From the NCBI RefSeq assembly GCF_000744655.1, contig NZ_JQMJ01000004.1, positions 4,526,001 through 4,590,000 on the forward strand: a stretch of DNA of 64,000 bases, read 5' to 3'. Position numbers and translations under genes: made by a program. This document shows positions 31,941 to 45,513 of this stretch, one piece after another. The first letter of the stretch is position 1. The number at the start of each line of letters is the position of its first letter. The DNA comes from Streptacidiphilus rugosus AM-16 (GTDB taxonomy: Bacteria > Actinomycetota > Actinomycetes > Streptomycetales > Streptomycetaceae). The notes beneath the pieces were generated by a model. The model did no database searches, was not told the DNA's origin, and worked only from the letters and a program-made list of their open reading frames with translations.

Positions 31941-32103
31941 GGTGGCGGCGTCCAGGTGTGCAGGTCGGGGATACTTCCACTGTCAATGGGGATGTCGCGG
32001 GTTCGAATCCCGTCGCCGACTCGTCGGTGTAGCTCAGTTGGCCAGAGCGCCTACGTCTCCTCGGCCGACCTTGATCTCTGGACCGCCTCCCGCTCGCGGG
32101 AGG
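31941..32103 (+). ncRNA. YrlA-type Y RNA 1 with permuted tRNA-like module
   Basis: Outer stem GGCGG-TCCAG (31944-31955, two bases bulged) pairs with 32078-32087. Core words GGTGTGCAG and ATACTTCC follow, and TTGATCTC precedes the 3' strand. The tRNA-like part runs in permuted order: T-arm GCGGG-TTCGAAT-CCCGT (31997-32013), acceptor 3' strand CGCCGAC, 2-nt joint, acceptor 5' strand GTCGGTG, TA, D-arm GCTC-N9-GAGC (32032-32048). A further 8-bp stem (ACGTCTCC with GGGGATGT) sits where the anticodon stem would be. Hairpin 32086-32103 may end it. This is the known YrlA layout for RNAs bound by bacterial Ro60. Confidence 0.75.
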
Positions 32104-32105
32104 AC

Positions 32106-32266
32106 AGGCAGTGGGGTGCCCGGTGCGCAGACCGCGGTTACTTCCCGTTGGAGGACGAGGGTCCAGGTTCGAATCCTGGTCGCCGACCGTCGTGTCGGCG
32201 GTAGCTCAATGGACAGAGCGCGTTGTGTGCCCGCAGTCGACCTGGATCTCGGACACCCCACTGCCT
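32106..32266 (+). ncRNA. YrlA-type Y RNA 2 with permuted tRNA-like module
   Basis: Ends pair strongly: GGCAGTGGGGTGCCCG (32107-32122) with CGGACACCCCACTGCC near 32250-32265, one mismatch. Core CCGGTGCGCAG, then CGGTTACTTCC; 3' core GACCTGGATCTCGG. Permuted tRNA-like part: T-arm CCAGG-TTCGAAT-CCTGG (32163-32179), acceptor CGCCGAC (32181-32187) with GTCGGCG (32194-32200) across a 6-nt loop, TA, D-arm GCTC-N8-GAGC (32204-32219). It ends 12 bp before the convergent NUDIX stop codon. Confidence 0.8.
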
Positions 32267-32277
32267 TCGGGCCCCGG

Positions 32278-32703
32278 TCAGGGCAGGTGCTCGTCGAGGT
32301 AGCGCTGGACCGGGGCGAACAGCCCGTGCGGGACGTAGGCCGGCAGCTCGGCGCGGGTGACCCAGGCGACCTCGGACAGTTCCTCGTCGTCCGCGGCGTA
32401 GGCGTCGCCCGAGATCAGCGCGCAGACCACGTAGGACACATGGCGGCCCGTCACCGGGTGAACCCGAGCCCCTAGCAGCAGGATGCCGTCCACGTCGAGG
32501 CCGGTCTCCTCGTAGGTCTCCCTGGCCGCGGCCTCCGCCGGGCTCTCGTCGTCCTCGATGCCGCCGCCCGGGAACTGCCACGACAGCTCACCTTCCGTGA
32601 CCCGGCGCCGCACGAGCAGCACCTTGCCGTTGGAGACCACGACCGCGACGGCGACGCCCTGCTGCTCGGTGGCCGACTGCTCGGTGACTGGCTGCTCGCT
32701 CAC
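32278..32703 (-). CDS. NUDIX hydrolase
   Basis: A 141-residue NUDIX pyrophosphohydrolase. The full NUDIX box is present at about residues 47-69 (PGGGIEDDESPAEAA, then RETYEETGL). The substrate class (nucleotide sugar, ADP-ribose, damaged NTP or RNA cap) cannot be told. It is 89 bp downstream of the RNA ligase gene on the same strand and is surrounded by Y RNAs. A role in removing nucleotide by-products or 5' caps during RNA repair is speculative. The GTG start follows GGGGGAG. Confidence 0.88.
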   Translation of the reverse strand: MSEQPVTEQSATEQQGVAVAVVVSNGKVLLVRRRVTEGELSWQFPGGGIEDDESPAEAAARETYEETGLDVDGILLLGARVHPVTGRHVSYVVCALISGDAYAADDEELSEVAWVTRAELPAYVPHGLFAPVQRYLDEHLP

Positions 32704-32792
32704 TGCTCCGCTCCCCCAGGGCCGACGGGACCGTACCGTACGAACAGATCTTGTCCCGAACCGGCGACCGCGACACGTGCGAGGAGCGGCCT

Positions 32793-33365
32793 CTACGAGC
32801 GGAAGTCCCGCGCCTTGATCTTGGCCATACGGCCGTCCTCGTGGTGCCAGACGATGCCCTCGCAGCCGTCCGCCTCGGCGGCGGCCAGCACGACGGTGCG
32901 CACGCCCTCGAAACTGAGGTCCTTCACCGCGATCGACTCGGCGGTGGCATGGGCGACGAGCCCGTGGGCCCGGCGGCGCTCGGGGTTGCCGTTGATCTTC
33001 GGGCCCACGAGCTCGTAGCTGCCCGGCCGCCAACCCCCGTGACTCTCGCCGGCGAGCGCCTCGGCGTGGAACTTCGCGAAGGCGGACTGCCCGACCGGCT
33101 CCCAGCCCATCGTCTTGCCGGTGACCTCGTCGGTCTGCACCGGGACGTAGTTCGGCGGCGGGGTCTTGCCGGGCTTCACCTCGCGCCTGGCCCACCACGC
33201 GCCCTGCTCGTCGAGCCGCACGCAGGTGCCGTCGTACTTGCGGGTGGCCCGGCCCTCGCCGGCCAGCACCCAGGCGCAGTCGGGGTGGACCTCGGACAGG
33301 ACGTGGGCGCGGTCGTCGGGATCACGCCGGAACAGGGTCGGGATCTTCTGCACGAGGGTCTCCAT
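32793..33365 (-). CDS. RNA ligase (RLIG1/DUF5565-type nucleotidyltransferase)
   Basis: A 190-residue ATP-dependent RNA ligase. Motif I KYDGT with the adenylated Lys at residue 43; WWARREVKPGK corresponds to the family WAR-KP element; motif III YELVGPKINGNP near 117-128; motif IV CEGIVWHHEDG near 168-178; motif V AKIKARDF near 181-188. This order matches the RLIG1 (C12orf29/DUF5565) RNA ligases that join 5'-phosphate and 3'-OH ends. No C-terminal extra domain. ATG 33365 is preferred; ATG 33407 is possible. Setting among Y RNAs and Ro60 points to RNA repair or maturation. Confidence 0.85.
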   Translation of the reverse strand: METLVQKIPTLFRRDPDDRAHVLSEVHPDCAWVLAGEGRATRKYDGTCVRLDEQGAWWARREVKPGKTPPPNYVPVQTDEVTGKTMGWEPVGQSAFAKFHAEALAGESHGGWRPGSYELVGPKINGNPERRRAHGLVAHATAESIAVKDLSFEGVRTVVLAAAEADGCEGIVWHHEDGRMAKIKARDFRS

Positions 33366-33640
33366 GGGGTCGGCGCCACGGTCGTTGCGTGGCGCGGAGT
33401 ATGACATCAGATCAGGGGACGGTCCCGCGAACCGATTTGTCGCGGGTGGGGTGGAATGGCGGCTGCGGGGAGCTCCCCGGGCAGGATCGCGTCGTCCCTG
33501 GCAGTCGATGGTCTTCGCGCGTTGATTTCGCGTCGGATTCGACGCCACATGTTCACTCCGCGACCCTGTTCCGCTCCCACTGCCGTGCGCTGTCATGTTC
33601 ACAGCCCCCGGGTCCGCCGGGGCGAGCCAGGGAGACCAGC

Positions 33641-34198
33641 ATGAGACGCACACTCGCCATCACCGCGGCGCTCGGCCTCGCGACCGGCGCGCTCACCCTC
33701 GCGACCGGCGGCTCCGCGCACGCCGCCCGGACCACGGCCGCCGTCCACCCCGCAGCCGCCACCACGTCGACCTGCTCGACCGCCCGGCTGCCGCTGCCCG
33801 ACCCGACCTGCACCCCTGGCGCGTTCAACCCCGCCGTCACGCAGGCCACCATCCACTCGACCATCTGCGTCTCCGGCTGGACCGCCACGGTCCGCCCGCC
33901 CACCTCGTACACCAACACGCTCAAGGCGCAGGGCATCATCGACTACGGCTACGCCGACACCAATCTGAGCGACTACGAGGAGGACCACTTCATCCCCCTC
34001 GAGCTCGGCGGCGCCCCGCGCGACCCGCGGAACCTCTGGCCCGAGCCCTACAGCGGCATGCTCACCGCGCACAGCAAGGACGGGGTGGAGACCAAGCTCA
34101 AGAACGCCGTCTGCGCCGGAACCGTCACCCTCGCGGCGGCCCGCTCGGCGATGCAGACCGACTGGACCACCGCCGAGCAGGTCCTCGGCCTGGGCTGA
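33641..34198 (+). CDS. Secreted HNH-like protein
   Basis: A 185-residue exported protein: signal peptide MRRTLAITAALGLATGALTL, ending near AHA. The mature part carries an HNH-type core (YEEDHFIPLELGG, then PRNLWPEP), the style of small secreted HNH nucleases and their inactive relatives in Streptomyces. Four or more Cys may form disulfides. It sits inside the Y RNA region but, being secreted, is probably not part of that system. AGGGAGACCAGC precedes the ATG. Confidence 0.75.
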   Translation: MRRTLAITAALGLATGALTLATGGSAHAARTTAAVHPAAATTSTCSTARLPLPDPTCTPGAFNPAVTQATIHSTICVSGWTATVRPPTSYTNTLKAQGIIDYGYADTNLSDYEEDHFIPLELGGAPRDPRNLWPEPYSGMLTAHSKDGVETKLKNAVCAGTVTLAAARSAMQTDWTTAEQVLGLG

Positions 34199-34349
34199 GC
34201 GGAGCCGCTGAGCCGACAGGCCGGGCGGACGCCGTCCGGCCGACCACGCCCGCCCGCCGAAAACTCGGCTGCGCGACGATCACTCCCCTGGATACCGTGA
34301 TCAGGTCGAGGTGCACGGGCGGGGGGCCGCCGCACCTGACACGTTCTCC

Positions 34350-34427
34350 TCGCATCTCCCGGTGCGAAGGCCCGCGGCTACTTCTCCGACAAGCCGCCGC
34401 AGGCCGTCACTGATCTCGGGAGGACAC
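34350..34427 (+). ncRNA. Short Y RNA 3 (no tRNA-like module)
   Basis: A compact RNA with the same 5' core as the YrlA copies (CCCGGTGCGAAGG, then GCGGCTACTTC) and the same 3' core (CACTGATCTCGGG). Its ends pair (CTCCCG 34356-34361 with CGGGAG 34417-34422). A simple hairpin GCGGC-N14-GCCGC fills the middle where others carry a tRNA-like module. Immediately followed by Y RNA 4. Confidence 0.65.
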
Positions 34428-34428
34428 G

Positions 34429-34578
34429 TGTGGGGTGCCCGGTGCGCAGGCAACGGTTCCTTCTTGGTCTGGGGGTTGCGGGTTCGAGTCCCGTCCTTCG
34501 CTTCGGGCGGAGGTAGCTCAATCGGTAGAGCATCAGAGTGCGTACCGTCGCCGCTTCCTGATCTCGGGCACCCACCGC
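34429..34578 (+). ncRNA. YrlA-type Y RNA 4 with permuted tRNA-like module
   Basis: Ends pair as GTGGG-TGCCCG (34430-34441, one G bulged) with CGGGCACCCAC (34565-34575). Core CCGGTGCGCAGG, then CGGTTCCTTC; 3' core TCCTGATCTCGGG. Permuted tRNA-like part: T-arm GCGGG-TTCGAGT-CCCGT (34478-34494), acceptor CCTTCGC (34495-34501) with GCGGAGG (34507-34513) across TTCGG, TA, D-arm GCTC-N8-GAGC (34516-34531). It ends about 36 bp before the rsr start, so RNA and gene may share a transcript. Confidence 0.78.
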
Positions 34579-34585
34579 GTCTCCT

Positions 34586-34607
34586 CCCCCCGACACCCTC
34601 AGGGGGG
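34586..34607 (+). promoter_or_regulatory. Hairpin covering the rsr ribosome-binding site
   Basis: CCCCCC (34586-34591) pairs with GGGGGG (34602-34607) across a 10-nt loop. The G run is the only Shine-Dalgarno-like sequence, six bases before the rsr ATG. The hairpin could stop transcription after Y RNA 4 or hold rsr translation low. Confidence 0.5.
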
Positions 34608-34613
34608 TTCTCC

Positions 34614-36233
34614 ATGTCCAGGTTCAACACCAAGGCCGCCCGTCCCGCGGGCTCCTCGCCGGTGACCACCACCGGCGAACGCGCCACCACCCACCAGGGC
34701 GGCGAGGGCCACCTGCGCGATCCCCGGTCGGAGCTGTTCCTGCTCGCCGTCACCAACATGGTCGGCCAGGACACCTTCTACGAGTCCGGCGGCCGACGCG
34801 ACGACCGCTTCACGCAGCTGGTCCGGAAGCTCGCCGTCGAGGATCCGGCCTGGACCTCCGGTCTCCTCTCCTGGCTGCGCGGCGACGCCGACATGCGCAC
34901 CGCCGCGCTGGTCGGCGCCGCGGAGTTCACCAGGGCGCGGCTCGACGCCGGGCTCGACGGCCGGTCCCGGCAGGCCGTCGACTCGGTCCTGCAGCGCCCC
35001 GACGAGCCCGGCGAGCTGATCGCCTACTGGACCGGCCGCTACGGGCGCAACCTGCCCAAGCCGGTCAAGCGGGGTGTCGCCGACGCCGTGGCGCGGCTCT
35101 ACACCGAGCGGGGCCTGCTGAAGTACGACACCGACAGCAAGGGCTACCGCTTCGGCGACGTCCTGGAGCTCGTCCACGCCGCACCGGCCAAGCCGTACCA
35201 GCACGACCTGTTCAAGCACGCCATCGACCGTCGGCACAACCGCGAGGACACGATCCCCGCGTCGCTCGGCACGATCCGGCGTCGCGCCGAACTGTTCGCG
35301 CTGCCGGTCGCCGAGCGGCGGGCCGTGCTCACGGCCGAGGGCGGCGCGGAGCGGCTGGCGGAGGCGGGAGTCACCTGGGAGGCGCTGGCGGGCTGGCTGC
35401 AGGGGCCGATGGACACGGCGGCGTGGGAGGCCGTGATCCCCTCGATGGGGTACATGGCGCTGCTGCGGAACCTGCGGAACTTCGACGAGGCCGACGTCTC
35501 GGACGAGGTGGCCCGTGCGGTCGCGGCGCGCCTCGCCGATCCGGCCGAGGTCGCGCGGTCGCGGCAGCTGCCGATGCGCTTCTACTCCGCGTTCCGGGCC
35601 GCGCCGTCGCTCCGCTGGGGCTGGGCGCTGGAGCAGGCCCTCGGGCACTCCCTCGCGAACGTGCCCGCGCTGCGGGGCCGGACGCTGATCCTGGTCGACA
35701 CCTCCGGGTCCATGCACGCCGGGTTCAGCAAGGACGGCACCGTCATGCGGTGGGACGCCGCCGTCGTGTTCGGACTCGCGCTCGGCCACCGCTGCGCGAA
35801 CGCGGACGTCGTGTCGTTCTCGGACTCCGGCTACACCTGGGCGGGCCGTCAGCCGGCTACCGCGCCGGACCGCGTGTTCCCACTCGCCAAGGGCGGCTCG
35901 GTGCTCGCGGAGGTGAGGCGCTGGAGCGAGGAGGGCTACTTCATCGGTGGCGGCACGGACACCGCCGGGGCGATCCGGCGACACTACCGGGGCCACGACC
36001 GGGTGGTGATCCTGACGGACGAGCAGGCGAACGGCCACGCGTCCGTCGACCAGGCGGTGCCGGGGAACGTGCCGCTGTACACCTGGAACCTGGCGGGGTA
36101 CCGGGTCGGGCACGCCCCCTCGGGCTCGGCGCACAGGCACGCCTTCGGCGGCCTGACCGACCAGGGATTCCGCATGATCCCGCTCCTGGAGAGCGGCGCC
36201 GACACCGCCTGGCCGTGGGAGAGCCGGGGCTGA
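34614..36233 (+). CDS. rsr: Ro60/Rsr ring protein (TROVE and vWA domains)
   Basis: A 539-residue ortholog of the Ro60 autoantigen. Residues about 20-340 form the TROVE HEAT-repeat ring that holds misfolded or damaged RNA ends and binds Y RNA on its outer face (LFLLAVTNMVGQDTFYESG, GYMALLRNLRNFDEADV). Residues about 355-539 are a vWA domain with a MIDAS motif DTSGSMH at 362 and GGGTDTAGAI. Bacterial Rsr works with Y RNAs, and with PNPase through YrlA, in rRNA maturation and RNA decay under stress. Y RNAs lie directly upstream; an RNA ligase is nearby. Confidence 0.95.
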   Translation: MSRFNTKAARPAGSSPVTTTGERATTHQGGEGHLRDPRSELFLLAVTNMVGQDTFYESGGRRDDRFTQLVRKLAVEDPAWTSGLLSWLRGDADMRTAALVGAAEFTRARLDAGLDGRSRQAVDSVLQRPDEPGELIAYWTGRYGRNLPKPVKRGVADAVARLYTERGLLKYDTDSKGYRFGDVLELVHAAPAKPYQHDLFKHAIDRRHNREDTIPASLGTIRRRAELFALPVAERRAVLTAEGGAERLAEAGVTWEALAGWLQGPMDTAAWEAVIPSMGYMALLRNLRNFDEADVSDEVARAVAARLADPAEVARSRQLPMRFYSAFRAAPSLRWGWALEQALGHSLANVPALRGRTLILVDTSGSMHAGFSKDGTVMRWDAAVVFGLALGHRCANADVVSFSDSGYTWAGRQPATAPDRVFPLAKGGSVLAEVRRWSEEGYFIGGGTDTAGAIRRHYRGHDRVVILTDEQANGHASVDQAVPGNVPLYTWNLAGYRVGHAPSGSAHRHAFGGLTDQGFRMIPLLESGADTAWPWESRG

Positions 36234-36249
36234 GCGCCGGCCCGCTCGC

Positions 36250-36759
36250 TCAGCGCCCGGACCGCTTCTTCCGGTCCGGGCGCCGGCGGCGGTTCGGGCG
36301 CGCCCGGCGGACCACGCTGTCGAGTTCGCCCACCGCCGCGCGGACGTGCTCGGGACCCCCGTGGGGGCGCTCCCCCGCACACCACCAGACCAGTCGGCCG
36401 TCGGACGCGCGCGGATGCATGCCGAGGTCGTGTTCCCCGCAGAGCGGCCAGGCGCGCCAGAGGCGTTCGGTGACGGTCTCCTGCGCGGCGTCGGCGACGG
36501 CGGCCAGCGCGGACAAGGGGTCGGCGACCGACTGCGGCTGGAGCGCGTTGCCGTGCCACTCGCCGTTGGCCAGCGCGACGTGGACCCATTCCCTGCCCGC
36601 CGCCTCGTCGTCCGACCGCAGCGCGAACAGCTGCAGCGGCCGCTCTCCCGGCAGGGTGGCCGCCAGGTCGCGGTTGAGCAGGGCCAGGGCCTGGTCCCAG
36701 GCCGGGAACTCCCCCGGTTCGACCTGACGGGGCTTCGGTTGCTCGAAGGGAGAACGCAT
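36250..36759 (-). CDS. Conserved protein of unknown function, Arg-rich tail
   Basis: A 169-residue soluble protein, no family recognised. It has WPLCGEHDLGMHPR, then WWCAGERPHGG (a possible C/H metal site near residues 100-130) and a strongly basic C-terminus (RRARPNRRRRPDRKK) that could contact RNA. Convergent with rsr. A 12-bp hairpin (GCGCCCGGACCG, 36253-36264 with 36272-36283) lies over its last codons and may be the rsr terminator. Confidence 0.55.
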   Translation of the reverse strand: MRSPFEQPKPRQVEPGEFPAWDQALALLNRDLAATLPGERPLQLFALRSDDEAAGREWVHVALANGEWHGNALQPQSVADPLSALAAVADAAQETVTERLWRAWPLCGEHDLGMHPRASDGRLVWWCAGERPHGGPEHVRAAVGELDSVVRRARPNRRRRPDRKKRSGR

Positions 36760-36855
36760 GCGCCCATCCTGCCGTGTCCGGGGCCGACCGCGTGGTCGTC
36801 ACCGGGGCGGCTCACCCCGGTCGCGGGTGGCACGGAACCCGTACAGGCTGGGGCC

Positions 36856-37053
36856 ATGCAGGAATTCCACGGGCAGGGCGTCGTCTACACGCAGGGCCGG
36901 GTCAGCCCCGACCATCAGCCGGAGATCGTCTCGCACCCCGGCTACATCTGGTTCGACGGGCCGTGGGTCCACATCGAATCACCCCCGGACTCGGGACGGT
37001 TCAAGACCTTCCCGATGCGCGAGGTGACCAAGGTGACCTGGGCGCGGTCCTGA
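36856..37053 (+). CDS. Small conserved protein (65 aa)
   Basis: A 65-residue protein (MQEFHGQGVVYTQGRVS, ending EVTKVTWARS) with alternating beta-type residues and two Trp (WFDGPWVHIESP). Unknown family and function. Followed by a 12-bp hairpin at 37076-37107. Confidence 0.55.
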   Translation: MQEFHGQGVVYTQGRVSPDHQPEIVSHPGYIWFDGPWVHIESPPDSGRFKTFPMREVTKVTWARS

Positions 37054-37075
37054 CACCGTCCTCGGTCCGCGCGGA

Positions 37076-37107
37076 CCGGCGGGCGGGAGGGAGCGCCCGC
37101 CCGCCGG
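37076..37107. terminator. Bidirectional terminator hairpin
   Basis: Perfect 12-bp stem CCGGCGGGCGGG (37076-37087) with 37096-37107, between convergent small genes. Confidence 0.7.
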
Positions 37108-37126
37108 CCTGACGCGGCGTCGGTGA

Positions 37127-37495
37127 TCAGCCCGGCACGGCGACCAGGAAGTACCGGCGGCCGTCGGCGCCGACGACCGGCACGGGCGAGTCGGGCAGGC
37201 GGGTGAAGACCGCCTCCGCTATGTCCTCCGGCGCGTCCCCCGCACCGAGCGGACGACGCAGCGCGGCCCGGATGGCCTCCTGCGTGGCCGGCGAGAGGGG
37301 GCGCCCTGCGTCCTCGTCCCTGACCACCTGGGCCAATCCGGTCATCTGCTCGACGGTCAGGTCGGCGCCGAGCCCGAGCGCGGCCGCCCGGACGGCGACC
37401 TGCGCCGCCAGCGCGGCGCGGTTCCAACTGCGTGCGACGTGCCCCGGCGTGCCCGGGGGAAGAAAGAAGACAGCGGATCCGAGGGAGCTCTTCAA
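37127..37495 (-). CDS. Conserved hypothetical protein with TTG start
   Basis: About 122 residues, starting LKSSLGSAVFFLPPG (L read as fMet). GGAGG lies five bases before a TTG at 37495; no ATG or GTG with a ribosome site fits, as upstream codons look non-coding. Contains a helical middle (SWNRAALAAQVAVRAAALGL, VEQMTGLAQVV) and ends PVVGADGRRYFLVAVPG. Family not recognised. Confidence 0.5.
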   Translation of the reverse strand: MKSSLGSAVFFLPPGTPGHVARSWNRAALAAQVAVRAAALGLGADLTVEQMTGLAQVVRDEDAGRPLSPATQEAIRAALRRPLGAGDAPEDIAEAVFTRLPDSPVPVVGADGRRYFLVAVPG

Positions 37496-37838
37496 AGGGG
37501 CCTCCTGGAGAGATGGCTCGACGAGCCGGCCGGCGTCCGCGCCGACCGGCAGGACGCGGCGCCCCGCCCTGTGGCGCCCCGCCCTGACAACGTCCATTCT
37601 CTCGCCCGGCACTGACAATTCCGGGGCCCCGGGACCCGTCCCACCAGGCACTTCCGTCGCCGGGGCCCTCGACCGCCGACCTGCGGAGCGCGTCGCTTCG
37701 CGCACGTCCGGCCAACGCCGCCACGCCGGGTCGGCCCGGGTCGGCTCCGAGCCGCCGAACGGGTGAAGGAAATTCGGTGGCCCGGGCCTCGCCCTGCTCC
37801 CTAGTCTCATGGCAGCGGGGGGAGACCTCCCGCACCGA
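37496..37838. other. Intergenic region before the tRNA-Tyr-like RNA
   Basis: About 340 bp of GC-rich DNA with several short palindromes (for example GGGGCCCCGG near 37622) and a TAGTCT hexamer at 37802. No convincing gene; it probably holds the promoter of the RNA at 37839. Confidence 0.4.
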
Positions 37839-37920
37839 GCGTCGAGTGCTGGGACACACGTGGGCCTGTAAAGCCCGCGCCCGCAGGGCTGGCGAGGTTC
37901 GATTCCTCGGCGACGCACCA
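37839..37920 (+). ncRNA. tRNA-Tyr(GTA)-like RNA with encoded CCA
   Basis: An 82-nt RNA in normal tRNA order. Acceptor GCGTCG pairs with CGACGC (6 bp), then ACCA. D-arm is only 3 bp (GTG/CAC) with loop CTGGGACA. Anticodon arm TGGGC-CTGTAAA-GCCCG gives anticodon GTA at 37868-37870 with T33 and A37. A variable arm GCCC-GCA-GGGC follows, as in type II tRNAs including Tyr. T-arm CGAGG-TTCGATT-CCTCG. The usual T8 is missing and the D-arm is weak, so it is tRNA-like rather than a standard decoding tRNA. It ends 29 bp before the next gene. Confidence 0.6.
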
Positions 37921-37949
37921 CGAGAGACACAGACCCAGGGGGATCCGTC

Positions 37950-38684
37950 ATGGCCACCAAGCTGAACCAGATCATCGCCGTGGAGAAGGGCGTCAAGGCC
38001 AAGGCCTTCGCGGACCTGACCCAGGCTCACCACGACGTGCAGAAGACCGCGCTGCTCACCGGCATCGCGCGGACGTACCAGCCGCGCGACGAGGAGGGCG
38101 AGATGTTCCCGCCCGAGTCGACGCGGGTGCAGGTGCACGCCGAGGACGTCCTGCGCGGCACCGCCGCGTCGCTGACCCGCCTCTTCGACGTGACCGCCAC
38201 CAAGGACTGGGCCAACTGCCACGCGCGCGCCGAGGTGAAGGTCGACGGACGGGTGCTGCTGACGGGCGTGCCGGTCGGCTATCTGCTCTTCCTGGAGAAG
38301 CAGTTGGTGGATCTGCACACCTTCGTCAAGAAGCTGCCGGTGCTGGACGCGGCCGAGTCCTGGAGCCGTGACGAGTCCACCGACAGCTGGCGGACCGAGG
38401 CGGTGCGGACCAACCGCACCAAGAAGGTCTACCGCAACCACGTCAAGGCCGAGGCCACCGAGAAGCACCCGGCCCAGGTCGAGGTGTACACCGAGGACGT
38501 GACGATCGGTTACTGGACCACCGTCAAGTTCTCCGGTGCGCTGCCGGCCCGTCGGGTCAACGAACTGCTGGAGCGGGTGGAGAAGCTGCAGCAGGCGGTC
38601 AAGTTCGCCCGCGAGGAGGCCAACGCCACGGAGATCGTCGACCAGCGGATCGGCGACGCCGTCTTCGGCTACCTTTTCGAGTAG
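37950..38684 (+). CDS. Conserved actinobacterial protein of unknown function (tentatively DUF7873-like)
   Basis: A 244-residue soluble, charged protein: helix-rich N-terminus (KLNQIIAVEKGVKAKAFADL, HHDVQKTALLTGIART), a beta middle with LLTGVPVGYLLFLEKQLVDLHTF, and a C-terminal coiled coil (VNELLERVEKLQQAVKFA). No catalytic motif seen. It is flanked by a tRNA-like RNA on the 5' side and two permuted tRNA-like RNAs on the 3' side, so an RNA-binding or RNA-handling role is a reasonable guess. The family name is from memory and should be checked. Confidence 0.65.
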   Translation: MATKLNQIIAVEKGVKAKAFADLTQAHHDVQKTALLTGIARTYQPRDEEGEMFPPESTRVQVHAEDVLRGTAASLTRLFDVTATKDWANCHARAEVKVDGRVLLTGVPVGYLLFLEKQLVDLHTFVKKLPVLDAAESWSRDESTDSWRTEAVRTNRTKKVYRNHVKAEATEKHPAQVEVYTEDVTIGYWTTVKFSGALPARRVNELLERVEKLQQAVKFAREEANATEIVDQRIGDAVFGYLFE

Positions 38685-38697
38685 CCACACACAGACT

Positions 38698-38715
38698 CCC
38701 CGTCTTCGGGCGGGG
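38698..38715 (+). other. Hairpin after the tRNA-flanked gene
   Basis: CCCCG (38698-38702) pairs with CGGGG (38711-38715) across TCTTCGGG, 14 bp after the stop codon. It is either a weak terminator or the 5' boundary of the next tRNA-like RNA. Confidence 0.4.
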
Positions 38716-38758
38716 TGCGCCAGGAGCGCAAGCTGAAGCTGAAGCTTGTCGTGACGAA

Positions 38759-38834
38759 CGCGGTCCAGCGGAGGTTCGACTCCTCCCCCCGGCACCACGC
38801 GCCGGGGTAGCCCAAGAAGGGTAGAGGCGCCGCG
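38759..38834 (+). ncRNA. Permuted tRNA-like RNA 5 with internal ACCA
   Basis: In order: anticodon-stem-like strand CGCGG (38759-38763), variable TCCAGC, T-arm GGAGG-TTCGACT-CCTCC (38770-38786), acceptor 3' strand CCCCGGC, ACCA, CGC, acceptor 5' strand GCCGGGG (38801-38807), TA, D-arm GCC...GGC (38810-38828), G, then CCGCG (38830-38834), which pairs with the first strand. All stems of a tRNA close, with the 3' half before the 5' half, and the encoded ACCA sits at the joint. The GGTGYGCAG/TGATCTCGG Y core is not clearly present. Confidence 0.65.
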
Positions 38835-38891
38835 ATCAATCTCAGACTCTCGCTCCAGACTCAGCATTCGCCATCCAGCATCGGATCGACC

Positions 38892-38977
38892 GAGTGCGGG
38901 CAACACTCGCCGGATGCCGGTTCAACTCCGGCTCCCCGCTCCAGCGTGCGGGGGTAGTTCAAAGGCAGAACACGGCG
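38892..38977 (+). ncRNA. Permuted tRNA-Gly-like RNA 6 with internal TCCA
   Basis: In order: hairpin GAGTG-N7-CACTC, anticodon-stem strand CGCCG (38908-38912), GAT, T-arm GCCGG-TTCAACT-CCGGC (38916-38932), acceptor 3' strand TCCCCGC, TCCA, GCGT, acceptor 5' strand GCGGGGG (38948-38954), TA, D-arm GTTC-AAAGGCA-GAAC (38957-38971), A, then CGGCG (38973-38977), which pairs with CGCCG. Acceptor, U73-CCA and D-arm match bacterial tRNA-Gly closely. Normal-order tRNA genes do not fit here. Confidence 0.7.
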
Positions 38978-39037
38978 ACCTGAGAATGACCCGGGCTCTT
39001 AAACGTGCCGGCGCGTCCGCAGGTGGCAAAGACGAGG

Positions 39038-39062
39038 CCCGGGAGCCGGATATGCTCCCGGG
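39038..39062. terminator. Terminator hairpin
   Basis: CCCGGGAGC (39038-39046) pairs with GCTCCCGGG (39054-39062), 7-nt loop. It closes the tRNA-like RNA region and faces the convergent methyltransferase gene. Confidence 0.75.
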
Positions 39063-39074
39063 TCTCACTGGCGC

Positions 39075-41398: not shown

Positions 41399-42331
41399 TC
41401 AGCGCACGTGCTGGAGCCAGGCCGGCCGGCCCGCCAGGGTCGCGGCGCGCTTCGCCGCCTCGGCCGCGGCCAGCTCCTCCGGGGAGGCGAAGCAGCGCGG
41501 CAGCCACTCCGTGGAGCGGGCGACCCGGGCGGCGAGGTGGTGCACGTAGGCGTCGCGCAGCGTCTCCGGCGTCGGGTAACCCGGCTCGGGGACGAGCCAC
41601 AGGTCGGGCACCTCGGCCACGACCTCGCGCAGCAGCGCCTCGGTGACCAGCGGCGCGAGCGCGGTGTCGGCGGCCACGACGTCGGGGGCATAGCCGCCGA
41701 GCGCGTGCGCGGAGAAGTCGTAGACCTTGGCGACGGCCTCGTCGGCCGTCTCCCAGCGGTGGTGGAAGATCAGCGCGGCCCCGTGGTCGATCAGCCAGAG
41801 GCGACGGTGCCAGACCATCAGGTTCGGGCTGTGGACGGTCCGGTCCACGTTGCCGACCAGGGCGTCGAACCAGACGACCCGGCCCGCCTCGACGGAGTCG
41901 AGGTCGACGCCTGCCTGGCCGGGGACGAAGTCGCGGGCTCCGGGGAGGTAGTCGAGGCCGAGGTTCAGTCCGGCGCTGGCCCGGTGCAGGTCCTGCACCT
42001 CCTGGTCCGGCTCGGCGGCGGAGACCGCGGGGTCGAAGCGGACCAGCACCAGCTCCGGCACCCGCAGCCCGAGGCGGCGCGCCAGCTCTCCCACGATCAC
42101 CTCGGCGACCAGCGCCTTGTGGCCCTGCGCGGCGGCGTGGAATTTGACCACGTAGGTGCCGAAGTCGTCGGTCTCCACGACGGCGGGCAGCGAACCGCCG
42201 GTGCGCAGCGGCTCCACGTAGTCGAGCGCCGTGACCTCGGCGAGCTCACCGTGCGTCGTCACCGTCGCCGCCTCCCTTCGTCGGTCCGGCCACAGGCATG
42301 GGCCGAACAGCAGGTCCACCCAGTCAAGCAT
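41399..42331 (-). CDS. HipA-like kinase-fold protein
   Basis: A 310-residue protein related to HipA kinases but with no HipB partner. Seen: substrate-like strand GTYVVKFHAAAQGHKALVAE, FDALVGNVDRTVHSPN (catalytic-loop-like N-x-D-R), and LWLIDHGAALIFHH (metal-binding D). HipA toxins phosphorylate aminoacyl-tRNA synthetases; stand-alone members are uncharacterised. It overlaps the marR gene by 8 bp and is downstream of pheST on the same strand. Confidence 0.8.
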   Translation of the reverse strand: MLDWVDLLFGPCLWPDRRREAATVTTHGELAEVTALDYVEPLRTGGSLPAVVETDDFGTYVVKFHAAAQGHKALVAEVIVGELARRLGLRVPELVLVRFDPAVSAAEPDQEVQDLHRASAGLNLGLDYLPGARDFVPGQAGVDLDSVEAGRVVWFDALVGNVDRTVHSPNLMVWHRRLWLIDHGAALIFHHRWETADEAVAKVYDFSAHALGGYAPDVVAADTALAPLVTEALLREVVAEVPDLWLVPEPGYPTPETLRDAYVHHLAARVARSTEWLPRCFASPEELAAAEAAKRAATLAGRPAWLQHVR

Positions 42332-42993: not shown

Positions 42994-45513
42994 TCAGCCT
43001 CGGAGTACCGCGTTCACGCGGGACGACGCCTCCGCCACGGCGGACTCGCGGGCCGCCGAGGCCTCGTCCGCGGTGAGGGTGCGGTCCGCCGCGCGGAAGC
43101 GGAGGGCGTAGGCCAGGGACTTCTTGCCCTCGCCGACGCTCTCGCCCCGGTAGACGTCGAACAGCCGCAGGGACTCCAGCAGCTCGCCCGCGCCCTCACG
43201 CAGCGCGGACTCCACGTCCGCCGCCGCGACGTCCGCGTCGACGATGAGGGCCACGTCCTGCGTCGCCACCGGGAAGGTGGAGATCTTCGGGCCCTCGGGC
43301 TTGGCCGCGCCGTCCTCGGTGAGGAGGTCGAGGTCGAGCTCCATCGCGCAGGTGCGCTCCGGCAGGTGCAGCGCCTTGACCACGCGCGGGTGCAGCTCGC
43401 CGGCGTGGCCGACCAGGCGGTCGGCGACGTACAGCGCCGCGCAGCGGCCCGGGTGGAACGGGGCGTGCTGGTCCTGGCGGACCGTCAGCCGGGCGCCCGC
43501 CGCGTCCGCGACCGTCCGCGCGGCCTCGATCGCGTCGGCCCAGGTCCAGGCCTCCGCCTTGCCCCACCAGCCGTCGGCGACGCGGTTGCCCGCGAGCACC
43601 GCGGCCACGCGGTACGGCTGACGCGGCAGCGCCGCGTCCAGCTGCGCGATCTCGTCCTCGGTGGGACGGCGGTCCACCGGCAGGCGCGGCGCGTTGTACA
43701 GCGTGTCCGCCGTACCGTCGACGCGGAAGACCCGGCCGAGCTCGAACAGCGCGACGTCGGTCGAGCCGCGGCCGATGTTCCGGCGCAACGCGCCGAGCAG
43801 GCCCGGCAGCATCGTGGTGCGGAGCGAAGGCTCCTCGTCGGAGATCGGGTTGGCGAGCTTGACCGTCTGCCGGCGCGCGTCGCCCGCCTCGATGCCGAGG
43901 CCGTCCAGGACCGCCTCGCCGATGAACGGGTAGTTCAGCACCTCGACGTAGCCCGCCGCGGCGAGCGCGAGGCCCAGGCGGCGGCGCAGCCGCTGCGCGT
44001 CCGTCAGGCCGCGACCGGCCGGGACGTTCGGCAGCGTGGAGGGCAGGTTCTCGTAGCCCTCCAGCCGGATGACCTCCTCGGCCAGGTCGTTCGGGTCGGT
44101 CAGGTCGGGCCGCCAGGTGGGCGGGGTGACGACCAGCACGTCCGTGCCGACGACGGTGCAGCCGACCTCCTGGAGGCGGCGGACGACCGTCTCCCGCCCG
44201 TACTCCTGGCCCGCGACGCGGTCGGGAAGGTCGGCGGCGATGGCGATGGAGTGCACCGGGCGCGGGGCCACGACGTCGGTGACGCCCGCCTCGGCGGTGC
44301 CGCCCGCGACGATGACCAGCAGGTCCACCGCGCGCTGCGCGGCGGCCTTGGTGGCCTCGGGGTCGACGCCGCGCTCGAAGCGCTTGGCCGCCTCGGAGGG
44401 CAGCTTGTGGCGACGCGCGCTGCGGGCGATCGGGACCGGCGCGAAGTGCGCGGCCTCGATGACGACCTCGGTCGTGCCGGAGGCCAGGCCCGTCTCCGGG
44501 TCGACGACCGGGTCGGCGATCTCGGTCCCGGCACCGCCCATGACGCCGGCGATGCCGATCGGGCCGCTGTTGTCGCAGATCAGCAGGTCCTCGGCGTCGA
44601 GGGTGCGCTCCACGCCGTCCAGCGTGCGCAGCTTCTCGCCCTGCGCGGCGCGGCGGACCGTGATCGCGCCGTCGATGCGGTGCCGGTCGTAGGCGTGCAG
44701 CGGCTGACCGAGCTCCAGCATCACGTAGTTGGTGATGTCGACGGCCAGCGAGATCGGGCGCATGCCCGCCTTCTGGATCCGGCGCTGCATCCAGATCGGC
44801 GACCTTGCGCGCGGGTCGAGGCCGATGACGCTGCGGGCGACGAAGCGGTCGCAGCCGACCTGGTCCTCGACCTTGACCAGCGGGCCGTAGGAGTTGGCCG
44901 GCGGCACGTCGATCAGGGCCGGGTCGCGCAGCGGCAGCCCGTACGCGATCGCGGTCTCGCGCGCGACGCCGCGGACCGAGAGGCAGTAGCCGCGGTCGGC
45001 GGTGACGGCGATGTCCAGGACCTCGTCGACCAGCTCCAGCAGCTCGATCGCGTCGGTGCCGGGCTCGTACTCCGGCGGCAGCACGATGATGCCGTCGTGG
45101 TCGTCGCCCATGCCCAGCTCGCGGGCGGAGCAGATCATGCCCTCGGAGGTCTTGCCGTAGGTGGCGCGCGCCGCGATCGGGAACGGGCCGGGCAGCACCG
45201 CGCCGGGCAGCACGACGACGACCTTGTCGCCCACGGCGAAGTTGCGGGCGCCGCAGACGATGTTCTGCGGCTCGCCGGTGCCGTTCGCGTCGCCGACGTC
45301 CACCTGGCAGTAGCGGATCGGCTTCTTGAACTCGGTCAGCTCCTCGATGGCGAGGACCTTGCCGACGACCAGCGGGCCCTTGAGGTCCGAGCCGAGCTGC
45401 TCGACGGTCTCGACCTCGAGGCCGGCCCGGATCAGCTTCGTCTGGATGTCTCGGCCGGTCTCACCGGCGGGGAGGTCGACGTACTCCCGCAGCCAGGAAA
45501 GCGGGACGCGCAT
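42994..45513 (-). CDS. pheT: Phenylalanyl-tRNA synthetase beta subunit
   Basis: An 839-residue beta chain that pairs with PheS to charge tRNA-Phe. Domains in order: B1/tRNA-binding OB fold, B3/B4 editing domain, B5, synthetase-like core, and C-terminal anticodon-binding FDX-ACB domain ([18 protein letters not shown]). Length is normal. Overlaps pheS by one base (TGATG), coupling the subunits. Confidence 0.97.

What the first reader, a model, noticed from the sequence alone, without database searches (positions are those of the whole stretch)
31941..39062. Ro60 (Rsr) island with an RNA ligase, Y RNAs and permuted tRNA-like RNAs
Within 7 kb lie rsr (TROVE-vWA, MIDAS DTSGSMH), an RLIG1-type RNA ligase, a NUDIX gene, a conserved unknown protein framed by tRNA-like RNAs, and at least six structured RNAs. 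Bacterial Rsr with one or two Y RNAs is known. A cluster joining Rsr, an RLIG1 ligase, four Y RNAs and further permuted tRNA-like RNAs is not something I know as a described system. It could seal broken tRNAs, mature permuted RNAs, or recycle RNA after damage. Co-function is inferred from proximity.
Basis: partly seen in the sequence, partly recalled or inferred. Interest (0 to 1): 0.92.

Follow-up and report, generated by a model that had tools for sequence, protein, structure and literature searches.

The report
Phage-shared protein with permuted tRNA mimics
Beside an ordinary bacterial Ro60 gene and its Y RNAs lies a separate, apparently undescribed gene pair, an unknown protein (DUF7873) followed by a long folded RNA carrying two scrambled-order copies of a tRNA's body, which recurs in Streptomyces relatives and in very different phages and so probably works as one RNA-protein machine.

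Summary
The structured RNAs are real, but the 7-kb "island" is not one system. Three RNAs (Y1-Y3) share the stem of Y RNAs found upstream of rsr in relatives: ordinary Rsr/Y RNA. The RLIG1-type ligase and NUDIX gene look like mere neighbours (no ligase or DUF7873 in 20 fetched rsr loci; no such RNA in 14 fetched ligase loci). The new thing is the "conserved unknown protein": DUF7873 (PF25283) with a proposed ~370-nt RNA just downstream (38698-39066). It carries two circularly permuted tRNA-like modules (T-arm, acceptor, D-arm), conserved linkers and a terminal CNGGNUAYG hairpin. A covariance model of module 2 finds it beside 50 of 50 DUF7873 loci in 100 relatives, and all 50 strong matches lie there. 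At least one permuted module follows DUF7873 in 111 of 111 actinobacterial loci and 18 of 19 phage loci tested (actinophages, cyanophages, Klebsiella, Vibrio, Rhizobium phages). Covariation is strong (32 of 36 pairs). DUF7873 has no TROVE domain and no confident fold match. Best reading: a second, Rsr-independent RNP presenting tRNA mimics as scaffold or decoy. Target unknown; no expression data; in a third of loci a competing unpermuted fold is possible.

The parts
37950..38684 (+). DUF7873 protein gene (244 aa), proposed RNA-binding partner
   Evidence: PF25283 390.4 bits; found in 69 of 150 relatives and 73 phage records; AF2 model pLDDT 87.1, pTM 0.60
38698..39066 (+). whole proposed DUF7873-associated RNA (that it is one transcript is inferred)
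   Evidence: 38696-39072 folds better than 99 of 100 dinucleotide shuffles, z -2.99; aligned and covarying in relatives
38698..38729 (+). 5' hairpins: CCCCG..CGGGG and GCGC-cagga-GCGC
   Evidence: coordinates; consensus
38759..38834 (+). permuted tRNA-like module 1: anticodon-stem-like strand CGCGG 38759-38763, T-arm 38770-38786, acceptor 3' strand, ACCACGC linker and acceptor 5' strand 38787-38807, D-arm 38810-38828, CCGCG 38830-38834
   Evidence: scanner; coordinates; 97.7% of cells paired, 10 of 20 pairs changed on both sides, 0/500 shuffles reach it
38838..38865 (+). conserved linker AATCTCAGACTCTCGCTCCAGACTCAGC between the modules
   Evidence: strongly conserved in the consensus of 93 and 95 sequences
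38870..39027 (+). module 2 with its two-step basal stem: outer stem and GGATCGACCG / CTTAAACGTGCC internal loop, T-arm 38916-38932, acceptor + TCCAGCGT linker 38933-38954, D-arm 38957-38971
   Evidence: covariance model R1; 94.7% of cells paired, 32 of 36 pairs changed on both sides, 0/500 shuffles
39034..39066 (+). terminal hairpin with CCGGATATG loop
   Evidence: GGNTAYG-type loop on >=6 bp in 69 of 93 actinobacterial sequences against 2 of 930 resampled and 0 of 93 upstream stretches; 9 of 13 phage sequences tested, one of them cyanophage Pam2
37839..37923 (+). non-permuted tRNA-like element (ARAGORN: tRNA-Tyr GUA) with T-arm, acceptor and CCA; companion in a few close relatives only
   Evidence: same element about 110-140 nt upstream of DUF7873 in L097-L100, where the anticodon arm is not kept; 2 of 92 non-redundant loci, L097 and L099, have it
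34614..36233 (+). rsr (TROVE Ro60 orthologue), separate known-type system
   Evidence: 30 of 61 relatives match, some by fragments only
34430..34576 (+). Y RNA Y3, directly upstream of rsr (ends read by eye from the stem)
32108..32265 (+). Y RNA Y2 (ends read by eye)
31950..32083 (+). Y RNA Y1 (ends read by eye)
32793..33365 (-). RLIG1-type RNA ligase (KYDG motif read from the sequence); judged a chance neighbour
   Evidence: PF17720; RLIG1 chains 9c6l and 9c6m, E 4e-9 and 2e-8; not found beside rsr in 20 loci, nor beside such RNAs, rsr or DUF7873 in 14 ligase loci
32278..32703 (-). NUDIX hydrolase; judged a chance neighbour
   Evidence: PF00293; no match in 14 ligase loci of relatives

Best explanation
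The novel object is a two-part locus: DUF7873 plus a ~370-nt non-coding RNA downstream on the same strand. Each of two modules in the RNA reproduces a tRNA's T-arm, acceptor stem and D-arm in permuted order; module 1 is closed by an anticodon-stem-like helix, and module 2 sits on a two-step stem with a conserved internal loop, as a Y RNA does. Proposed mechanism (inferred): DUF7873 binds the conserved non-tRNA parts (module-2 internal loop, inter-module linker, terminal hairpin), and the modules present tRNA surfaces to a tRNA-binding partner such as a nuclease, modification enzyme or the ribosome. In phages this would serve as decoy or sensor against attack on tRNA; in Streptomyces and relatives as a resident RNP analogous to, but separate from, Rsr/Y RNA. 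Shown: RNA structure by covariation, near-obligate linkage, occurrence without rsr. Inferred: transcription as one RNA, protein binding, mimicry, biological role.
For: Linkage: R1 finds 50 matches of >=55 bits in 100 genomes (cut set by me after seeing the list; the next match was 51.1); 50 of 50 lie -19 to 288 nt downstream of DUF7873 on its strand, and 50 of 50 DUF7873 loci there have one (by locus id 9 of the 50 were in R1's training alignment). 111 of 111 actinobacterial loci have one (40) or two (71) permuted modules downstream at score >=17 (some loci may be one species fetched twice, 93 of 110 compared are below 85% identical). Phages: 18 of 19 loci by a stricter scanner, 28 modules, 0 in 380 resampled stretches, 1 in 26,984 nt of their CDS plus upstream DNA (19 of 31 distinct viral loci fetched; the other 12 each had at least one module at the laxer cut). 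In the 19th (Microcoleus phage) R2 matches module 1 over its length (42.2 bits) further downstream, behind an RRXRR/HNH gene with HEARO RNA; R1 matches weakly there, its basal stems unpaired. Proteins are down to 28% identical. Most held-out actinophages and cyanophages match R1 over full length. Covariation. Terminal hairpin: 69 of 93 against 2 of 930 resampled. DUF7873 and rsr are each found without the other. No neighbour cluster exceeded 21 of 53 loci.
Confidence: 0.6

Rival explanations
1. The permuted modules are precursors of real tRNA-like molecules: RNase P and a 3' nuclease open the linker, giving a two-piece RNA with a free, chargeable CCA end (as in two-piece tmRNA), or a ligase joins the outer ends as with permuted tRNA genes.
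For: NCCA follows the acceptor in 14 of 28 phage modules (my count; related phages count apart), 19 of 58 module-1 and 8 of 93 module-2 linkers of Actinobacteria, against 1 in 64 by chance; long hairpin-bearing linkers in Vibrio, Rhizobium, Klebsiella and IMG/VR copies; beta_tmRNA partial hits of 24-25 bits, gathering 84; the window's own linkers are ACCACGC and TCCAGCGT.
Against: Most actinobacterial linkers lack CCA and some are only 4 nt (ACGG), too short for two cleavages; no anticodon loop can be read; no ligase is linked. CCA may be a relic of tRNA ancestry.
Confidence: 0.15
2. The two modules are extra Y RNAs that serve Rsr in trans; DUF7873 is an auxiliary Rsr-pathway protein.
For: Same permuted core as YrlA; positive co-occurrence of rsr and DUF7873 (25 both, 5 rsr only, 8 DUF7873 only, 23 neither); low-scoring full-length R2 alignments to some Y RNAs.
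Against: 8 of 33 DUF7873 genomes lack a detected rsr, and some of the other 25 have only rsr fragments; the rsr-type stem (GUGCCCGGUGCGCAG .. UGAUCUCGGGCAC) of the rsr-linked elements is not in the modules' consensus.
Confidence: 0.1
3. The RNA is a 3' UTR or terminator element that regulates the DUF7873 mRNA, for example by autoregulation or as an antitoxin-like RNA.
For: Downstream on the same strand in the loci examined; ends in a strong hairpin.
Against: A ~370-nt RNA with two tRNA-like modules is far more than such a role needs; in the Microcoleus phage module 1 lies about 1.8 kb from the gene, behind an inserted element.
Confidence: 0.1
4. One RNA-repair island: Rsr, the RLIG1 ligase and all RNAs act together.
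For: Proximity in this window; 13 of 15 ligase genomes also match rsr.
Against: No linkage of ligase with rsr, DUF7873 or RNAs in the relatives' loci fetched.
Confidence: 0.04
5. The modules are artefacts of tandem tRNA genes (3' half of one, 5' half of the next) or chance.
For: Tandem tRNA-Asn and tRNA-Gly pairs do mimic the pattern: 17 of 20 weaker R1 loci that I fetched were such pairs.
Against: ARAGORN finds no tRNA pair around either module; in 57 loci with both modules the acceptor strands pair across modules (>=6 of 7) in only 5, whereas tandem tRNAs would pair so always (pairing within modules is imposed by the scanner); the conserved non-tRNA parts covary.
Confidence: 0.02

Closest known systems
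Bacterial Y RNA YrlA (Rfam RF02553) with Rsr/Ro60
   Same: Permuted tRNA-like domain (T-arm, acceptor closed by a loop, D-arm) on a stem with an internal loop (tRNA-like domain and stem described in passages of PMC8394870; alignment to the family)
   Different: Partner gene is DUF7873, without TROVE domain; two modules in one proposed RNA; conserved linker, different stem and terminal CNGGNUAYG hairpin; below YrlA's gathering score
Two-piece (permuted) tmRNA
   Same: Permuted gene order with CCA followed by a spacer in many phage copies
   Different: CCA not conserved; beta_tmRNA only 24-25 bits against 84; a tag reading frame was not looked for
Circularly permuted tRNA genes (algae and an archaeon; recalled; PMC3978253 and PMC3218864 seen only in a search listing with start of abstract)
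   Same: 3' half, spacer, 5' half order
   Different: Long conserved insert in place of the anticodon loop; short loop-closed acceptor in most bacterial copies
GOLLD / ROOL / OLE ornate RNAs (PMC12286853, listing and start of abstract only)
   Same: Large structured RNAs; GOLLD often near phage tRNAs (recalled)
   Different: No Rfam match to any of them at E <= 1 in the window stretch or ten phage loci; tied to one protein family
RNA-repair operon rsr-yrlBA-rtcBA (PMC7790460, passages)
   Same: rsr beside Y RNAs and, here probably by chance, an RNA ligase
   Different: Ligase is RLIG1-type, not RtcB, and not linked in the relatives' loci fetched

Membership tests
Bacterial Y RNA (YrlA) | Score above Rfam gathering threshold (69 bits) | tested here: not met
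   Modules 23.7 and 21.1 bits in the window, up to 37.6 bits in phages; the rsr-linked Y1-Y3 fail it as well (24.2-38.5)
Bacterial Y RNA (YrlA) | Permuted tRNA-like domain | tested here: met
Bacterial Y RNA (YrlA) | Linked to and bound by Rsr/Ro60 | tested here: not met
   Linkage only: in 100 genomes all 50 strong module-2 matches lie beside DUF7873; binding not testable. Y1-Y3 share the stem of rsr-linked elements
Rsr/Ro60 (TROVE) protein, for DUF7873 | TROVE domain by sequence | tested here: not met
   Pfam at E <= 0.01: only DUF7873
Rsr/Ro60 (TROVE) protein, for DUF7873 | TROVE ring fold | tested here: inconclusive
   No confident fold match, TROVE not listed
Rsr/Ro60 (TROVE) protein, for window rsr | TROVE domain with a Y RNA beside the gene | tested here: met
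   PF05731 over its cut-off; VWA_2 18.2 bits is below its cut-off of 27; Y3 directly upstream
RLIG1-type RNA ligase | PF17720 over cut-off | tested here: met
   31.7 bits, cut-off 25; RLIG1 chains
Two-piece tmRNA | Rfam tmRNA score over gathering | tested here: not met
   Only partial beta_tmRNA hits at 24-25 bits, gathering 84, in three phage loci, none in the window stretch
Two-piece tmRNA | Tag reading frame | not tested
   No search for a tag was made
Permuted tRNA gene | Decodable anticodon after rejoining the halves | tested here: inconclusive
   Stem CGCGG/CCGCG exists but long inserts replace the loop; no processing data

The most novel reading that the evidence does not exclude
DUF7873 and its RNA are an undescribed class of ribonucleoprotein shared by phages and Actinobacteria: one long RNA holding two permuted tRNA mimics, drawn from changing tRNA types (Leu- and Gly-like by eye), that lures or senses tRNA-attacking defence enzymes; in phages whose linkers keep CCA the modules are opened into two-piece, chargeable tRNA mimics, and in some hosts module 1 may switch between a permuted and an unpermuted fold.
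Probability: 0.2. Interest if true: 0.95.

Novelty: categorically new. Interest (0 to 1): 0.85.

Why it matters
It gives a protein family of unknown function (DUF7873) a specific RNA partner to test, and suggests that tRNA-mimicking permuted RNAs are not confined to Ro60/Y RNA particles. Because the pair occurs in cultured phages of Gordonia, Rhodococcus and Arthrobacter and in many named Streptomyces, pull-down and deletion tests are feasible at once. The variety of acceptor stems with conserved tRNA shape points to a conflict over tRNAs, which is inferred and untested.

Tried and rejected
Rejected or set aside: (1) one Rsr-ligase island. (2) Unpermuted tRNA at 38709-38797 (ARAGORN): not rejected outright. 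Such calls occur in 29 of 93 loci and not in resampled DNA; 18 of 56 loci have a matching upstream strand, 38 of 56 do not; kept as a possible competing fold. (3) A conserved protein neighbour of DUF7873: best cluster 21 of 53 loci, many clusters being spurious high-GC reading frames. (4) Weaker R1 matches as further RNA families: of 20 fetched, 12 were tandem tRNA-Asn and 5 tandem tRNA-Gly pairs, 1 rsr-linked, 2 unexplained. (5) PHROGs: no family for DUF7873 or three phage homologues at E <= 0.01; PDB by sequence: nothing meaningful; PADLOC: nothing for rsr, ligase or DUF7873, one NUDIX hit PDC-S07. (6) Fold searches without a confident match; TROVE not among the listed chains. (7) Literature: DUF7873/PF25283 in 0 papers; the titles and starts of abstracts listed show nothing on this locus; passages only were seen. 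Four key papers were not held, so prior description cannot be excluded.
Full report
WHAT WAS CHECKED. The window lies in a 9.0-Mb genome (G000) whose closest named DUF7873 loci are Streptacidiphilus (91-93% identical protein). Pfam confirms rsr (34614-36233), an RLIG1-type ligase (32793-33365, minus strand), a NUDIX gene (32278-32703, minus strand) and DUF7873 (37950-38684). A scanner for the order T-arm, acceptor 3' strand, loop, acceptor 5' strand, D-arm finds five high-scoring elements, all on the plus strand, at 31997, 32163, 34478, 38770 and 38916; five Markov-resampled windows never exceed 17.4 while these score 17.6 to 20.8. Rfam YrlA hits all five below its gathering score.

THE RSR PART IS A KNOWN KIND. 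Of 20 fetched rsr loci (17 genomes), 12 have one or two permuted elements just upstream of rsr by the scanner; model R1 adds L031 and L032 (run on 19 of the 20). Aligned with Y1-Y3 of the window (20 elements, of which L039b is an outlier that I kept), they share a basal stem, GUGCCCGGUGCGCAG on the 5' side and UGAUCUCGGGCAC on the 3' side, and covarying T, acceptor and D arms. I take these for ordinary Y RNAs in the sense of the bacterial Rsr literature (passages). I find three here, not four. None of the 20 loci carries the ligase or DUF7873. None of 14 ligase loci in relatives (1.5 kb flanks; one, L095, with only a weak ligase match) has a permuted RNA at score 17.5 or a match to the NUDIX gene, rsr or DUF7873. 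The ligase is thus most simply a neighbour.

THE NEW PART. DUF7873 is present in 69 of 150 relatives but in only 6 of 296 genomes drawn from the phylum, all 6 in the window's own family, and in 73 phage records of Arthrobacter, Rhodococcus, Gordonia, Pseudanabaena, Microcoleus, Klebsiella, Serratia, Vibrio and Rhizobium phages, at 28-55% identity to the window's protein in the copies aligned. In 111 of 111 actinobacterial loci (30, 80, and the window; some may be the same species twice) the scanner finds two (71) or one (40) permuted modules downstream of the stop codon. In the annotated phage loci the region after DUF7873 is mostly free of annotated coding genes (the Vibrio and Gordonia Ronaldovirus records have short ones). 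A stricter scanner finds modules in 18 of 19 phage loci, 28 modules in all, with none in 380 resampled stretches and 1 in 26,984 nt of their coding plus upstream DNA. These were 19 of the 31 distinct viral loci fetched; the other 12 each had at least one module at the laxer cut. The exception, a Microcoleus phage, has an RRXRR/HNH gene with HEARO RNA at 129 bits after DUF7873; beyond it R2 matches module 1 over its length (42.2 bits), while R1 matches only around the tRNA-like core, its basal stems being unpaired (36.5 bits).

ANATOMY (coordinates). Two 5' hairpins (38698-38715, 38717-38729); module 1 with an anticodon-stem-like helix CGCGG/CCGCG (38759-38834); a strongly conserved linker (38838-38865); module 2 on a two-step stem whose internal loop reads GGATCGACCG and CTTAAACGTGCC (38870-39027); a terminal hairpin with loop CCGGATATG (39034-39066). 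The latter type occurs in 69 of 93 actinobacterial sequences against 2 of 930 resampled and 0 of 93 upstream stretches and in 9 of 13 tested phage sequences. Whether this is one transcript is inferred. Module 2: 94.7% of cells paired and 32 of 36 pairs with changes on both sides in 21 sequences; no slid version exceeds 47% paired; 0 of 500 shuffles reach the observed values. Module 1: 97.7% and 10 of 20 in 13 sequences. The loci were picked with the scanner, which requires near-complete acceptor pairing, so the acceptor counts lean towards the structure; the basal stems of module 2 were not part of the scan. The stem below module 1 is conserved but hardly varies, so it is not demonstrated.

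A RESULT THAT DOES NOT FIT NEATLY. ARAGORN reads an unpermuted tRNA that uses module 1's T-arm in 29 of 93 actinobacterial loci, the window included, and in 0 of 93 resampled stretches; an upstream strand before a GCGC hairpin pairs with module 1's acceptor 3' strand at 6-7 of 7 in 18 of 56 loci, against 2 of 336 slid controls. In the other 38 of 56 it does not. The upstream strand also pairs within its own hairpin. This may be a competing fold, or a trace of ancestry; I cannot tell.

LINKAGE. Model R1 (module 2) was run on 100 relatives. All 50 matches of 55 bits or more lie -19 to 288 nt downstream of DUF7873 on its strand, and all 50 DUF7873 loci of these genomes (one a fragment) have one; the cut of 55 was set after seeing the list, where the next match has 51.1. 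By locus id nine of the 50 were among R1's 21 training rows. Weaker matches fall on rsr-linked Y RNAs, on module 1 and on tandem tRNA genes; of 20 weaker loci fetched, 17 are tandem tRNA-Asn or tRNA-Gly pairs. That confounder does not explain the modules: in 57 loci with both, acceptor strands pair across modules in only 5. Against rsr-linked Y RNAs R1 aligns the tRNA-like core only, except L042 (full length, 30.8 bits); R2 aligns several over full length at 22-37 bits.

RELATION TO RSR. Among 61 genomes, 25 have both, 5 rsr only, 8 DUF7873 only, 23 neither (rsr calls include fragments). The association is significant by Fisher's test (p 8e-6) but phylogenetically confounded; the exceptions both ways suggest that neither needs the other. 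The 1.7-kb distance looks particular to this genome: where both lie on one contig elsewhere they are far apart (for example G035, about 68 kb; G026, about 350 kb), and draft contigs leave many untestable.

HOW IT MAY WORK. By anatomy it resembles a Y RNA particle: a protein-binding stem and a tRNA-mimicking head. I propose that DUF7873 replaces Rsr as the bound protein and that two heads present tRNA surfaces to a tRNA-binding target. The position inside tRNA clusters of several phages and changing acceptor stems with conserved tRNA shape fit decoys or sensors in tRNA-directed conflict. CCA after the acceptor, in 14 of 28 phage modules (my count), 19 of 58 module-1 and 8 of 93 module-2 linkers, is far above chance and fits descent from tRNA genes; in phages with long hairpin linkers a processed two-piece form remains possible.

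NOVELTY. No Rfam family reached its cut-off on the window, and on ten phage loci only tRNA, tRNA-Sec, tmRNA and HEARO did. DUF7873 is in no paper of the held library, and the listings of nine other literature searches showed nothing on such an RNA. Four key papers were not held, among them a survey of RNA-repair systems, so an earlier mention cannot be ruled out. I rate it categorically new as a gene-RNA system, noting that its tRNA-like module is of the same kind as YrlA's.

Noticed in passing
L182:3941-5452: In Microcoleus phage My-WqHQDG an RRXRR/HNH gene (of the IsrB type, recalled) with a HEARO RNA lies between DUF7873 and its RNA.
   Followed up: partly
window 38696-38807: Module 1's T-arm and acceptor 3' strand could also fold with an upstream strand into an unpermuted tRNA-like shape; ARAGORN calls it in 29 of 93 loci, 0 of 93 resampled.
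   Followed up: partly
window 37839-37923; L097-L100 about 110-140 nt upstream of DUF7873: A non-permuted tRNA-like element with AGUGCUGG where a D-arm would be, T-arm, acceptor and mostly CCA; the anticodon arm is not kept, so it is probably not a tRNA-Tyr. Present in the window and four Streptacidiphilus loci, not found in a fifth (L131); a similar element follows DUF7873 in L182.
   Followed up: partly
L228:3937-3990 and L229:3925-3977: Two permuted tRNA-like elements with neither rsr nor DUF7873 nor tRNA genes found in the 8 kb fetched.
   Followed up: no
G029:C62:58725-59046: Only a fragment of DUF7873 (profile positions 82-145) is matched but the RNA still scores 60.8 bits with R1.
   Followed up: no
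L041:11216-11270: An rsr-linked Y RNA whose acceptor loop is ACCACAC, that is with a CCA, and which scores highest of the rsr-linked elements with R1 and R2.
   Followed up: no
L043, L044, L045 (second rsr copies of G006, G021, G050) and L040, L046, L047: rsr loci in which no permuted element was found upstream by the scanner.
   Followed up: no
L179:1075-1603: Gordonia phage Phendrix carries a tmRNA (89 bits, cut-off 47) in its tRNA cluster.
   Followed up: no
window 41399-42331 and 42994-45513: A HipA-like kinase gene and pheT (phenylalanyl-tRNA synthetase beta) lie further downstream; no link to the finding was tested.
   Followed up: no
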